A stretch of DNA of 38,760 bases, from assembly GCA_000961585.1 (NCBI GenBank), contig LADN01000037.1, positions 1 through 38,760 on the forward strand, read 5' to 3'. This stretch comes from Peptococcaceae bacterium BRH_c4a (GTDB lineage: Bacteria > Bacillota > Desulfotomaculia > Desulfotomaculales > Desulfocucumaceae). This document shows, piece after piece, positions 1-33,808 of this stretch. Both the position numbers and the translations under genes were made by a program. Position 1 is the stretch's first letter. Every line of letters starts with the position of its first letter. The notes beneath the pieces were generated by a model that did no database searches, had not been told where the DNA came from, and worked only from the letters and a program-made list of their open reading frames with translations.

Positions 1-2893
1 GGCGATGCCGGCGCGGTTGCCGGTGGCGGCGGCGGCGATGCCGGCGCAGTAGGTGCCGTGGCCGTGGTCGTCTTCCGGGTGGCTGTCGTCGTTGACGAAG
101 TCGTAACCGGGGATGAGTTTGGCCGCCAGGTCGGGATGGTTTAAGTCGCAGCCGCTGTCGATGACGGCGATGGTGATCTCCCGGCTGCCTTTTTCAATGT
201 CCCAGGCCCGGGGGGCTTTGATGTCGGCGCCGGGGGCGCCGCCGGTCTGGCCGGTGTTGGAAAGGCCCCACTGTTTGTCGAAGGCGGGGTCGTTGGGAAT
301 AAGCAGGGTTTCGAGCAGGTAGTTGGGCTCGGCGTATTCTACGGCGGGCTCCTGCCGATACTGCTGCGCTGTTTTTTCGACTGTTCCGCCGTCTGGAATC
401 TGCAGGCGGTAGACGCCGATTTGCGGAAGTTTTTTGCTTTTTCCGATACCGTGTTTCCGGTTTATTTCGTCGATGGTGGCCGTGTCTGTGCCGGCTTTGA
501 ATTTTACCAGCAGTTCTTTTTCTTTGAACTGTGGTTTGACGGGTCTGGCCGGTGCGGCGGTTTGTTCTTTTTTCTTTTCCCAGGCGTTGTTTTGCGCAAC
601 GGTTATTTTTTGCAGGCGGTTTTCCTGGTCGTAGGCATAGGTGAAATGGGTTTTGCCGGGCAACTCCCAGATGTCCGGCAGGTTTTTTTCGTCTTCCGGG
701 CCGCTGAATGAGGGTTTTTGCTGGAATCTGGTCATGGCGGTACGGTTGCCGGCGTTGTCGTAGGTGTAGCTGTTTGTGTGGTGAATCCTGCCGGAGGAGC
801 CTCCTTTGCGCATGGTTTCGGAGGTCAGCCGGTTTAATGGATCGTATGTGTACTGAATATGATCGCCGTCGGCTGAAGTTATGGCTGTTCTTATGCCGGC
901 TGCGTCGTATTGGTAATTATACGAAGAGATGACCTCCTGAGCATTCACTCTCTCGTTGACCAGCTTTAAGAGCCGGTTCAGGTTGTCGAAGGCATAGGTG
1001 GTTCTGGTGTTGTTGGGATAAGTCGCGGACACCAGATTGGATAATTTATCGTAGGCGTAACTTGTGGCTTTGCCCTGCGGGTCGGTGACTTTTGTCAGGC
1101 GGTTTAGCGAGTCGTATTCATAAAGGGTTACGCTGCCGTCCTGGTCGGTCATTTTGGTGCGGTTTCCGGACGCGTCATATTCGTAGCTGATGGTGTCGGT
1201 GCCCGCCGGTCCGTTTTCTTTTATGAGGCGGCTCAACTGGTCATACTGGTAAGTGGTGGTCCCCCGGTCGTCGCTCATGGCGGTGCGCCTGCCGGTGGTG
1301 TCGTACTGGTAGGAAACACTGCTTCTGTCGGGATAGGTTACGCTCACCAGACGGTCGTTTTCATCATATGCATACCGGATGGTGTTGCCGCCCGCGTCGG
1401 TTGTGGCGGTCCGGTTGCCGGCGGGGTCGTATGCCATGGTTGTCGTGTGGTCCAGGGGACTGATGACTTCGATAAGCCGGTTGAGCTGGTCATAGTTGTA
1501 GGTGGTCCGGTTGTAATTGGCGTCGGTGAAGCCGACCCGGTTGCCTTCGGTGTCGTAGCTGTAAACGGTGGTATGACCAAGGGGGTCGGTGACACCCGCC
1601 AACCTGTTGACGCTGTCGAAGGTGTAACTGGTGGTGGTGCCCCGGGGATCGGTGAGGGCGTCGAGGTTACCCGCGGCGTCGTATTGATAGGAAACGGTGT
1701 TGCCGCCGGGACCGGTTACCCGCAGGGGCCGGTTCACGGCGTCGTATGCTATGGAGGTGGTGTTGCCCAGGGCGTCGGTGACGGCCGTGCAGTTGCCTGC
1801 GGTGTCGTAAGCAAATTGGGTCCGGTTGAGTATGGGATCGATGACGGCGGCAAGGTTGCCGGGGGCATCGTACTCACAGGTGGTGATGCTGCCTTTGGGA
1901 TCTGTGGCGCTGATTGGATTGCCGCTGCTGTCATAAGCGTAGGAACAGTTATTTCCTGCTGCGTCGATAGCTTTGATGAGGTTGCCCCGGCTGTCGTATT
2001 CGTAAGTTGTCTGGTGACTCAAGGGGTCGGTGATGCCGGTGCACAGGTTGTATATGGGTTCGTAGGTGAAGCTGGTGCTGTTGCCCTGCGGGTCGGTGAG
2101 ACCGGTGAGGTTGCCCCGGTCGTCGTAGGTCATGACGGTGGCGTGGCCGTTCCGGTCGGTGAAGCGGGTTTTGTTTAGATCGCTGTCCCATTGTGATTCC
2201 TGACTGTGATTATCGGCGTCCTCGATGCGGGTGATGACCCTGGTGTCGCCGATGACGGTATGGTAATAGGTGGTGGTATGTCCTTTGGAATTGGTGGTGA
2301 CGGTTTTCCGGTTATCCGGATCGTACTTGAGACTGATGCTGTTGTTGTCGCCGTCATAGGAAAATTTCGTGGCGCGGCCTTTTGTATCGTAGGTGAAGTT
2401 GCGCTTGTTGCCTTTCGGGTCGGTGACCGTCAGAAGCTGGTGCTGGTGGGTAAAGTTCTTGTATTCGTATGTGGCGGTGTTGCCGGCCGGGTCGGTGACG
2501 GTTTTCAGGTTGTTGTTACCGTCATAGGCGTAACTGATTGAGCGGTCGAGCGAACCGGTGACACTCAAGATCCGATCCTGGGAGTCGTATGTGAAGGTGA
2601 TCTGGCGGCCGGAGGCGTTTGTGACTGTGTCAAGCCTTTCCCCGTTGTAGGAGAGGGTAATCTGGTTGCCGTTTTGATCTTCTATGTGACTCAGTTTCCC
2701 TGCGGTGTTAAACTGGCTGATCACGCCGTGCTTGTCCCGCAGGGTGAAGGTTCCGTCGGCGCTTTTGGTCAGGGTGGAGCGGTTGCCCGCCGGAGTCTGG
2801 TAAGTGCCGTCGGGGTTGCGGGTGAAGATTGCCAGTGCCCCGTATCCGTCAAATTCCCGCACGGTAGCGCCTTTGTCTACGAGGTGGGTGTTG
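1..2893 (-). CDS. Rhs/YD-repeat protein, downstream part, with S8 subtilisin-like protease domain (partial, frame-shifted)
   Basis: This is the continuation, in a different frame, of the gene that starts at 4006. I translated the minus strand from 2892 to 1 and found no stop. It begins with the end of the Rhs N-terminal (DUF6531-like) domain, then about 25 YD repeats of roughly 21 residues, such as YDPAGNRTA, YDQLNRLIEV and YDSLNRLTKVTD, covering about 2500-600. A charged, Pro/Ala-rich linker (about 600-520) follows, then a protease propeptide with the signatures ELLVKFKAGTD and VEYAEPNYLLE. Last is an S8 peptidase domain with the Asp motif IAVIDSGCDLNHPDL (about 165-125) and the His motif DDHGHGTYCAG (about 68-36). 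The catalytic Ser would lie beyond the left edge. The usual Rhs C-terminal core motif before a toxin tip was not seen. The protein is presumably exported and self-processed; that is inference. The frame break may be a real mutation or a sequence error. Confidence 0.85.
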
Positions 2894-4006
2894 TTAGCTG
2901 TGGGTCCAGCCGAAGCCGAAGGGGCCCTGGTTTTCGAACTTGGAATTATAGGTCCTGGTGAACTGGAGGGGAATGCCTTTGCCGGGAATAATCAGGTCTT
3001 CAAAAACGCTGAACACGTTGCCGGTGGTGACGTTAATGGGGTCGCTGGCCACGGTGGCGTTTGGGTCGGCGGTCGGGCCGTTATTCACCTGTTCCGGGTC
3101 GGAAGGCGCAGGGGGTTCTTCTTCTTTGGGCGGTTCTGTCCACCAGAACTGGGCGGCCATGAAGGAGGCGCCTTCGATGGCCAGAGGTTCGGTTAGGGTG
3201 GTGACGCTGCCACCGGTGATGTTGATTAAGGCTGATTCGGTACGGGCGTATGAAATGATGCCGTTCTGGTCGGTGGTCAGGGTGATGGTTTCGGTGTAGT
3301 TGTTATGGCCGGGCAGACGGAAGGTGGCGGAAAGCTGTTTGCCGGCCACCGGGTTGCCGGTTGAATCGAGAAGCCGGGCTTTCAAGCTTAAGCTGAAGGT
3401 GTTCCGGTACTGCCGGGAGTTTTCGATGCAGGATGAGATGTTCGCGTCGGCTATATAGTCAACCAGCGGCGGTAAGGATAAGGCGAGATCTGCGGCGGTG
3501 TTTAAGTTTTTGCTTAAGGCGGCAACCGGTACCGGCAGAATTGCCGGGGTCCCTTTGTTTTCTCTGCCGTTTAAGGTGAAAGTGTACTCCAGCGGTTTGA
3601 TCTGCCAGGTATTCGCTTCGGAGAGGGTATGGTCAGGGGTGACGATAAGGGTTTCGGTGAGGTTAACGCTGTATTTGCCGGGTGTGGTCTCGGACAACCG
3701 GCCGGTGTATCCGATGGTTGGCACGGTAAAGTCTATCGCTGCGCCGGAGAGTACCTCTGTTTCGGTTTTCAAGGGGTAAATGCTGAGGTAAGCTTCACTC
3801 CGGACCGTTACCTCGTTGTTTTCCCCGGTAACGGAGAAGCCGGAGAGTTTTCCCTGCAGCACCAGGGAGTCGTCGGGAATGATGAGGGTGCGCGGGCTGT
3901 TTTCTCCCGGCGACAGTTCGCACCAGGCCACACTGCCCACCAGGAGCAGGAAGACCAGGACGGCTACGTTTACCATTACCAGTACTGTTTTCTTTGAACC
4001 TATCAT
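2894..4006 (-). CDS. Secreted Rhs-type protein, N-terminal part (ends at frameshift)
   Basis: The start is ATG at 4006, chosen because GGAGGG lies six bases upstream (4012-4017); an upstream ATG at 4042 lacks such a site. Residues 1-30 form a signal peptide: MIGSKK, then a long hydrophobic stretch ending near SVAWC. I see no proper lipobox. Residues about 40-270 are extracellular-type beta-rich sequence, including a segment that resembles bacterial Ig-like domains (GNPVAGKQLSATF). A Pro/Glu linker (PPKEEEPPAPSDPEQ) precedes the Rhs N-terminal domain (DPINVTTGNVF, LQFTRTYNS, GPFGFGWTHS). The reading frame then hits TAA at 2894-2896, where family members continue WTHSYNTHL. Dropping one A restores exactly that sequence in the next frame, so this ORF and the region 1-2893 were one gene. 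A c-di-GMP riboswitch lies in its leader. Confidence 0.88.
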   Translation of the reverse strand: MIGSKKTVLVMVNVAVLVFLLLVGSVAWCELSPGENSPRTLIIPDDSLVLQGKLSGFSVTGENNEVTVRSEAYLSIYPLKTETEVLSGAAIDFTVPTIGYTGRLSETTPGKYSVNLTETLIVTPDHTLSEANTWQIKPLEYTFTLNGRENKGTPAILPVPVAALSKNLNTAADLALSLPPLVDYIADANISSCIENSRQYRNTFSLSLKARLLDSTGNPVAGKQLSATFRLPGHNNYTETITLTTDQNGIISYARTESALINITGGSVTTLTEPLAIEGASFMAAQFWWTEPPKEEEPPAPSDPEQVNNGPTADPNATVASDPINVTTGNVFSVFEDLIIPGKGIPLQFTRTYNSKFENQGPFGFGWTHS

Positions 4007-4047: not shown

Positions 4048-4080
4048 AAAAAGCCTGCCACCGGTTTAACCGTAGCAGAC
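4048..4080 (-). terminator. Intrinsic terminator in the riboswitch leader
   Basis: On the minus strand an RNA stem of about 12 pairs (GTCTGCTA CGGT / ACCG G TGGCAGGC, one bulged G, loop TAA) is followed at once by TTTTT. It lies between the c-di-GMP aptamer and the ATG at 4006, as expected for a riboswitch expression platform. The segment GTAGCACAGAC near 4121-4131, just after the aptamer, can pair with the 5' arm of this stem (GTCTGCTAC) with a two-base bulge, so it is a possible antiterminator. Confidence 0.8.
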
Positions 4081-4134
4081 TTTCTTTTCCCCTTTTGCTG
4101 TTAAAACTCCGTTTTCTGTCGCGTCTGTGCTACT

Positions 4135-4222
4135 TTATCAACGGCAACCCGGCTGTCCTGGCAAGTGTCGCTTTAGACCCGTAGCTTTGCGTCCCTGCCT
4201 TTCGGCAGGTTTGCCTTTTTCA
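4135..4222 (-). promoter_or_regulatory. Cyclic-di-GMP-I (GEMM-I) riboswitch aptamer
   Basis: Read on the minus strand, this has the conserved GEMM-I parts in order: GGCAAACC, a P2 stem CTGCC/GGCAG capped by a GAAA tetraloop, the core GGGACGCAAAGC, then TACGGGTCTAAAG, and a second arm ending CAGCCGGGTTGCC. GGCAA and TTGCC close P1. The family binds cyclic di-GMP and often controls motility, adhesion and exported proteins. It is 130 bases upstream of the Rhs/S8 gene start, with a terminator between. Whether ligand turns the gene on or off cannot be decided from sequence alone. Confidence 0.93.
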
Positions 4223-4232
4223 TTTTGCTGAT

Positions 4233-32842: not shown

Positions 32843-32894
32843 AATTCATCTCCGTCAGCTGTAAGCTTTTTCATCGCTTAGGAAAGTATATGAC

Positions 32895-32942
32895 GCATTA
32901 AAGCATTAAAGCGCTGAAGCACTGAAGCACCAAAGCATTTTT
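32895..32942. repeat. Degenerate 8-bp tandem repeat, six units
   Basis: GCATTAAA, GCATTAAA, GCGCTGAA, GCACTGAA, GCACCAAA and GCATTTTT follow without gaps, each starting GC and mostly ending in AA. Confidence 0.75.
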
Positions 32943-33009
32943 ATGTAGCCCAGAGTTTTTCTGGGGTCGCTCCGGGGTCACTTGAGGGTCGCTGCATTGT
33001 CGCTAATGG

Positions 33010-33230
33010 GTAGGTGGAGCGATTTGAGTCCGGCCTACATAACCTCCTGCTGCAACTGTCTCTAAACTCGGTCGCCAACGGAATGCCGACCGCCTCCAAC
33101 GCCGCATCCTTGCGTCGATTCCGGCTTCCGGCTGCGTCCTGCAGCCGGCTCGGCATTCCGTAGGCTCGGTCGTTAAGAGACAGTAGCAGCCTCCGGTACA
33201 TTCCGCACGGACTCAAATCACTCCCCCTCA
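33010..33230. repeat. Large imperfect palindrome flanked by 20-bp direct repeats
   Basis: The outer arms GGTGGAGCGATTTGAGTCCG (33013-33032) and CGGACTCAAATCACTCCCC (33208-33226) are inverted copies with few mismatches. Further in, CTGCTGCAACTGTCTCTAAA and the complement of TTAAGAGACAGTAGCAG pair, as do CTCGGTCG and CGGAATGCC with their partners. The centre is about 55 bases. GGGGTC(A/T)CTTGAGGGTCGCT occurs at 32974-32993 and again at 33245-33264 with one mismatch, as if bracketing the element. It may be a MITE or a structured RNA. Confidence 0.7.
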
Positions 33231-33284
33231 CTGCATGTCGCTGTGGGGTCTCTTGAGGGTCGCTTTTAAGGCTGCCTGTCACCA

Positions 33285-33318
33285 TTCTGGCTTCTGGCTT
33301 CTGGCTTCTGGCTTCTGG
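33285..33318. repeat. Heptamer tandem repeat TTCTGGC, nearly five copies
   Basis: Four perfect TTCTGGC units and a final TTCTGG run from 33285 to 33318. It has the same period as the repeat at 19173 but an unrelated sequence. Confidence 0.9.
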
Positions 33319-33324
33319 ATTCCC

Positions 33325-33349
33325 AAGCGCCCTTCAGGGCGTTTTTTTA
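33325..33349 (+). terminator. Hairpin with T-run at the 3' end of def
   Basis: AAGCGCCC and GGGCGTTT pair around TTCA and are followed by TTTTATT on the plus strand; the end overlaps the def stop codon. The T-run faces the plus strand although the neighbouring genes are on the minus strand, so it may block antisense transcription, or act only as a hairpin after def. Confidence 0.5.
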
Positions 33350-33808
33350 TTTCGCCCTTCGGATATTTTCGGCTTTATCAGTAAATAAAATACCATCCAG
33401 GTGGTCTATCTCATGCTGAAAGGCCCTGGCTGCAAAGCCCTGGACCACTATTTCCATTTCCAGCCCATCCCGGTTAAGCCCTTTTACCTTAATCTCCTCC
33501 GCCCTTTTGACATCCCCCACCACCTCGGGTATGCTCAGGCAGCCCTCAAGATCGGTTATTTCTCCCCGGGCCTCCTGTATCAAGGGGTTGATCATCTCCA
33601 CCAGCCCTTCCCCCACATCAACCACTATGACCCTTTTGGATATGCCTATTTGAGGCGCGGCCAGGCCGACTCCCTTGTTGGCGTACATGGTATCACGCAT
33701 ATTATCCAGCAGCTTGATGATGTTTAATGTTATTTTAGGCACTTCCCTGGCCTTTTCCCGAAGAACCTCCTCACCTATTTCCACCACATTATAAACAGCC
33801 AACCCCAT
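33347..33808 (-). CDS. def: Peptide deformylase
   Basis: Def (about 153 residues) removes the formyl group from nascent proteins. The three metal and active-site motifs are clear: GVGLAAPQIG (residue about 46), EGCLSIPE with the metal Cys, and QHEIDHLDG with the two His and the catalytic Glu. The start may be ATG 33808, the GTG before it, or a TTG at 33802 (MAVYNVVEIG) that fits both family and GGAGG spacing better. It lies 55 bases after priA and is the partner of fmt. Confidence 0.95.
   Translation of the reverse strand: MGLAVYNVVEIGEEVLREKAREVPKITLNIIKLLDNMRDTMYANKGVGLAAPQIGISKRVIVVDVGEGLVEMINPLIQEARGEITDLEGCLSIPEVVGDVKRAEEIKVKGLNRDGLEMEIVVQGFAARAFQHEIDHLDGILFTDKAENIRRAK

What the first reader, a model, noticed from the sequence alone, without database searches (positions are those of the whole stretch)
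1..4006. Secreted YD-repeat (Rhs) protein carrying a subtilisin-like protease where a toxin tip would sit
Seen: signal peptide, Rhs N-terminal domain, about 25 YD repeats, then a protease propeptide signature (ELLVKFKAGTD, VEYAEPNYLLE) and an S8 domain with its Asp and His motifs, all in one reading frame from 2892 to 1. Known: Rhs shells encapsulate C-terminal toxins and release them by aspartic autoproteolysis. Inferred: here the cargo or processing unit is a serine protease, so the protein may be a self-activating surface protease, a degrader or a contact-dependent weapon. I know no characterised example of this combination under c-di-GMP control.
Basis: partly seen in the sequence, partly recalled or inferred. 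Interest (0 to 1): 0.8.

Follow-up and report, generated by a model that had tools for sequence, protein, structure and literature searches.

The report
Secreted Rhs toxin with embedded protease
A secreted bacterial Rhs toxin shell carries a subtilisin-type protease inserted between two of its shell repeats, probably as a built-in processing enzyme, while the exchangeable toxin tip most likely comes after it; the gene sits behind a c-di-GMP RNA switch that also precedes other genes of this kind in related bacteria.

Summary
The frame is not continuous: signal peptide plus DUF6531 (4006-2897) end at a stop (2896-2894, one-base shift); YD repeats, prodomain and S8 lie in another frame (2889-1). 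The protease is not at the toxin-tip position. The window is a contig end; contig C30, which dovetails with it (168 bp, 98.8%), holds three related copies: S8 remainder (one copy lacks the Ser half), YD repeats, Rhs core and, where readable, DPxGL, different tips and CPCC or ankyrin immunity-type genes. A second species (G020) has an intact YD-prodomain-S8-YD frame, so the fusion is no assembly error. Related Rhs proteins have only a few residues at the insertion point. Best reading: a Sec-exported, WapA-like Rhs polymorphic toxin with an embedded S8 processing protease and spare cassettes. Zhang 2012 already lists subtilisin in Sec-exported, RHS-containing polymorphic toxins, so this is a new variant. 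Extra result: c-di-GMP-I riboswitches lead all three Rhs genes with assembled leaders in this genome and six more Rhs genes or operons in the order (9 observed, about 0.1 expected). C77-C30 contiguity and whether this copy is intact remain unproven.

The parts
4139..4224 (-). c-di-GMP-I riboswitch aptamer in the 5' leader of the Rhs gene
   Evidence: Rfam: RF03167 76.9 bits; RF01051 88.6 bits. It has GCAAA where the RF03167 consensus has GCGAA, so it reads as an ordinary c-di-GMP-I aptamer
4048..4082 (-). terminator-like hairpin with T run between aptamer and start codon
   Evidence: ViennaRNA fold. The simple consensus scan did not list it
2894..4006 (-). first frame: ATG, signal-peptide-like N-terminus, about 290 residues of unknown type, DUF6531 (Rhs N-terminal motif); ends in TAA inside the motif
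   Evidence: translation; PF20148 E 3e-15 at residues 322-370, about 3043-2897
3920..4006 (-). Sec-type signal peptide (approximate end)
   Evidence: read by eye from the translation; no predictor available
610..2700 (-). YD/RHS repeat shell (approximate ends)
   Evidence: PF05593, 19 stretches, E 3e-114; TIGR01643; phmmer matches to Rhs structures 8qja, 7q97, 8cp6, 7pq5
322..558 (-). Fervidolysin-type S8 prodomain
   Evidence: PF22148 E 2e-16, residues 778-856 of P0001
1..183 (-). N-terminal quarter of the S8 domain: Asp 159-157, His 60-58; cut off by the contig end
   Evidence: PF00082 positions 2-73; thermitase E 7e-22

Best explanation
The gene encodes, or until recently encoded, a Sec-exported WapA-like Rhs polymorphic toxin of an environmental bacterium. 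A prodomain plus thermitase-like S8 protease (about 400 residues with linkers) is inserted in a loop between two consecutive YD motifs of the shell, ahead of the Rhs core. After the core and its DPxGL motif comes an exchangeable toxin tip, followed by an immunity-type gene and spare tip cassettes. Proposed working: (1) c-di-GMP controls transcription through the leader riboswitch (direction not known); (2) the protein is exported by Sec and the shell folds outside; (3) the S8 matures by cutting after its prodomain, as subtilases do, which would nick the shell chain upstream of the last repeats, core and tip; (4) it may also trim the shell to free the tip, beside the aspartic self-cleavage at DPxGL; (5) tips are exchanged by recombination in the S8-YD-core region, leaving displaced cassettes that start inside the S8 sequence. 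The architecture is shown by sequence; steps 1 to 4 are inferred from the families involved; step 5 is inferred from the cassette anatomy.
For: S8 flanked by YD repeats on both sides in an uninterrupted frame of another species with Asp, His and Ser (G020:C38, L066 11762-13246). C30 copies: S8' with GTSAS, YD, TIGR03696 core (E 3.7e-22), DPLGL or DPYGL, two unrelated tips, then CPCC (PF14206, E 1e-30) or ankyrin genes; a HEAT-repeat gene precedes the third copy. C77 reads out into C30 through a 168-bp dovetail, and no other contig holds this sequence. Empty site: same-genus G002 and same-family G003 Rhs proteins have only a few residues between the YD motifs that flank the S8 module here. A second S8 placement with Rhs: N-terminal S8 in G000:C22 and in the intact 2711-aa protein of G037, which has a tip after its core. 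A sibling Rhs gene in the same genome has a pretoxin HINT self-cleaving domain (PF07591). Homology between cassettes starts at different points inside S8. Zhang 2012 (PMC3482391) lists subtilisin among processing proteases of Sec-exported polymorphic toxins.
Against: The frame is broken at 2894 and the C30 copy that would continue it has an in-frame TAA in S8, so this copy may be a pseudogene or the stops may be sequencing errors. The C77-C30 overlap has two mismatches after 133 identical bases, so C30 could be a second copy. The third C30 copy has lost the Ser half of S8, so the protease is not kept in every cassette. The G020 copy lacks core and tip. No protease activity, target or cleavage site is known. 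Neither tip matched a Pfam or NCBIfam family above cut-off, so toxicity is inferred from position and neighbours.
Confidence: 0.62

Rival explanations
1. The S8 domain is itself the effector: a surface protease displayed on an Rhs scaffold, used for nutrition or for attacking neighbours.
For: Full prodomain and catalytic residues in G020; closest solved relatives are thermitase-type secreted proteases.
Against: YD repeats follow S8 in all four copies that can be read on; core, DPxGL and distinct tips with immunity-type genes follow in C30.
Confidence: 0.15
2. The locus is a decaying relic: an S8-Rhs gene and its cassettes that no longer make a working protein. This can be true together with the best explanation, which then describes the ancestor.
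For: Frame break at 2894, stop in the C30 S8, truncated third cassette, orphan G020 fragment.
Against: A good riboswitch aptamer is kept upstream, the long YD frame of about 960 codons is otherwise open, and draft contig ends are error-prone.
Confidence: 0.35
3. The YD-S8 fusion is an assembly artefact joining separate genes.
For: The contig end lies inside S8 and the genome is a 98-contig draft.
Against: The YD-linker-prodomain junction is inside the contig, and the same two-sided junction occurs in another species at 57-67% identity.
Confidence: 0.02

Closest known systems
Sec-exported Rhs/WapA polymorphic toxins of Gram-positive bacteria
   Same: signal peptide, YD shell, variable C-terminal tip, immunity-type gene downstream
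   Different: an S8 protease sits inside the YD region; c-di-GMP riboswitch leader; no wall-binding region found
Polymorphic toxins with releasing peptidases (Zhang et al. 2012, PMC3482391), including subtilisin with RHS repeats (Ntox32 entry)
   Same: S8 peptidase in an RHS-containing, Sec-exported polymorphic toxin
   Different: only the table entries were seen; whether any of their examples has S8 between YD repeats was not checked
T6SS Rhs effectors and their cages (RhsA, Tse5, Tre23)
   Same: YD cage, core with DPxGL self-cleavage motif, C-terminal tip; sequence matches to 7q97, 8cp6, 7pq5
   Different: no PAAR or T6SS part seen; Sec signal; added S8
Thermitase/fervidolysin-type S8 subtilases
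   Same: prodomain type, catalytic motifs; thermitase 1thm E 8e-67 for the G020 copy
   Different: here inserted in another protein instead of free
Orphan Rhs-CT/immunity cassettes (for example Salmonella, PMC3967940)
   Same: displaced tip-immunity modules downstream that keep a piece of upstream homology
   Different: the kept homology reaches back into S8

Membership tests
Rhs/YD polymorphic toxin | YD repeats and DUF6531 N-terminal motif | tested here: met
   PF05593, PF20148
Rhs/YD polymorphic toxin | Rhs-associated core with DPxGL, then a variable tip and immunity gene | tested here: inconclusive
   met on C30; contiguity of C30 with the window is likely but not proven
Rhs/YD polymorphic toxin | tip is toxic and neutralised by its neighbour | not testable with these tools
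   tips had no family match above cut-off
WapA-type (Sec-exported) Rhs | Sec signal peptide | tested here: met
   by eye only
WapA-type (Sec-exported) Rhs | cell-wall binding region | tested here: not met
   only DUF6531 and a sub-threshold Big_1 match in the first frame; so it is called WapA-like, not WapA
S8 subtilase | Asp, His, Ser triad and fold profile | tested here: inconclusive
   Asp and His in the window; Ser only in C30 and G020
S8 subtilase | proteolytic activity | not testable with these tools
   needs a bench assay
c-di-GMP-I riboswitch | aptamer sequence and structure above gathering score | tested here: met
c-di-GMP-I riboswitch | ligand binding and control of expression | not testable with these tools
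   terminator-like hairpin seen by folding only

The most novel reading that the evidence does not exclude
An Rhs toxin class in which a c-di-GMP riboswitch controls a self-maturing shell: the embedded subtilase nicks the cage after export and so arms or releases an exchangeable tip, a second built-in cutter beside the aspartic self-cleavage of the core; and c-di-GMP-I riboswitch control of Rhs toxins is a regulatory theme of this bacterial order.
Probability: 0.3. Interest if true: 0.72.

Novelty: new variant of a known kind. Interest (0 to 1): 0.52.

Why it matters
How Gram-positive Rhs/WapA toxins are processed and released outside the cell is poorly known. A protease built into the shell gives a directly testable release mechanism, and the repeated c-di-GMP riboswitch leaders would link toxin deployment to the sessile or biofilm state. 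In the open papers searched I found no report that joins c-di-GMP riboswitches and Rhs genes.

Tried and rejected
The 80 nearest S8 relatives in named genomes, screened by motif, gave no S8 flanked by YD repeats (two loose-pattern hits, L140 and L167, dropped out with the stricter pattern). Searches of 113 genomes of the order, and 398 of the phylum with a cut-off of 1e-60, found the two-sided junction only in G000 and G020; the phylum sample did not include G020 among its listed matches and lists only strong matches, so it is not exhaustive. The RF03167 (GGC variant) label of the aptamer was set aside because RF01051 scores higher. The frame break and the C77-C30 gap were left as they are; pieces were searched apart.

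Full report
Observation. The minus strand of the window's left end carries two frames, not one. Frame 4006-2894 starts with a signal-peptide-like stretch and ends with TAA inside the DUF6531 motif. A second frame, 2889-1, holds the YD repeats, a Fervidolysin-type prodomain and the first quarter of an S8 domain with its Asp and His. The break is one base and not in a long homopolymer; I cannot tell a sequencing error from a real lesion. Window base 1 is the end of contig C77 of a 98-contig draft of 3.49 Mb.

What follows S8. The only other contig with this sequence is C30. Its first 168 bases match the outward end of C77: 133 identical, then two mismatches. C30 begins in the same frame, meets an in-frame TAA within S8, then continues with the catalytic Ser (GTSAS), YD repeats, the Rhs core (TIGR03696, E 3.7e-22), DPLGL, a tip and a CPCC-family gene. 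Two more copies follow on C30: one from the middle of S8 to a different tip and an ankyrin gene, and one, after a HEAT gene, whose S8 has lost the Ser half and which runs off the contig. CPCC, ankyrin and HEAT were identified here by Pfam; that such proteins serve as immunity proteins of polymorphic toxins is general knowledge, with Imm-HEAT named in PMC3482391.

Not an artefact. G020, another family of the same order, has one uninterrupted frame of 495 codons with YD, prodomain, S8 with Asp, His and Ser, and YD, 57-67% identical to the C77 and C30 parts. It is an orphan piece without core or tip. In same-genus G002 and same-family G003 Rhs proteins the corresponding YD motifs are separated by a few residues (flanks aligned as separate pieces). 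S8 is therefore an insertion in a loop between YD motifs. Whether it lies inside or outside the cage was not modelled.

A second placement. In G000:C22 (2059 codons, open at the contig end; its end overlaps C31 by 527 identical bases) and in the intact 2711-aa G037 protein, S8 is N-terminal to DUF6531, YD repeats and, in G037, core and tip (the G037 DUF6531 match is below cut-off). A further Rhs gene of the genome (C96) has a pretoxin HINT domain. That different self-cleaving or protease modules accompany Rhs shells in one genome fits a processing role, though it does not prove it.

Regulation. c-di-GMP-I aptamers lie about 80 to 130 nt before the start codons of the Rhs genes of C36, C22 and C77; these are three of the five above cut-off in the genome. 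The fourth long Rhs gene, C96, has its leader cut by the contig end. In the order, G001:C45, G003:C17 and G037:C1 (near 2.0 Mb) have one directly before the Rhs frame, and G034:C7, G047:C35 and G002:C23 have one about 2 kb upstream; in G034 and G002 the gap is filled by a 633-aa exported protein (its C-terminal repeats look like S-layer homology repeats by eye). That is 9 cases; a rough Poisson estimate with an assumed density of six aptamers per 3 Mb gives 0.13 expected among 43 DUF6531 matches. The C77 leader folds a strong hairpin with a T run after the aptamer, which suggests transcription attenuation; whether c-di-GMP turns it on or off is not determined.

Mechanism. Subtilases with this kind of prodomain mature by cutting after it (general knowledge). 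In this protein such a cut would sever the shell chain between the bulk of the YD repeats and the last repeats, core and tip. T6SS Rhs effectors are likewise cut into pieces that stay together (TseI, PMC7170923). The embedded S8 is therefore best read as a processing or release unit. This step is inference; no activity was shown.

Prior knowledge. Zhang et al. 2012 (PMC3482391) list subtilisin as a processing protease of Sec-exported polymorphic toxins and list Peptidase S8 together with RHS repeats for Ntox32. The combination is therefore known in kind. I did not find the insertion between YD repeats or the riboswitch link described in the open papers searched, which leave out most subscription journals.

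Verdict. New variant of a known kind; architecture well supported, mechanism inferred, and this copy possibly broken.

Noticed in passing
window 32867-33351 (TwoAYGGAY RNA at 33198-33041, minus strand): A repeated element, up to about 480 bp and 88-93% identical in part on contigs C36, C22 and C15 near Rhs genes, overlaps a TwoAYGGAY RNA match; a more distant copy is on C31.
   Followed up: partly
L043 (G000:C31), L041 (G000:C96), L042 (G000:C36): Further Rhs tip cassettes with different tips, including a cell-wall-hydrolase-like tip (PF07486, just under cut-off) on C36; a transposase-like ORF lies between cassettes on C31.
   Followed up: partly
L257 839-2740; L273 1284-3185 (minus): A 633-aa exported protein in two genera, between a c-di-GMP-I riboswitch and an Rhs gene: possible surface partner of the toxin.
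   Followed up: partly
G000:C37:12513-12597 and G000:C85:6149-6242: The other two strong c-di-GMP-I riboswitches precede a PAS/GAF/HD-GYP-like signalling protein and, about 370 nt on, a lipoprotein-like gene (by eye).
   Followed up: no
window 14502-14341: FMN riboswitch, minus strand. Most window proteins tested right of the Rhs gene are housekeeping: RecG, PASTA kinase, RsgA, FtsW-type.
   Followed up: no
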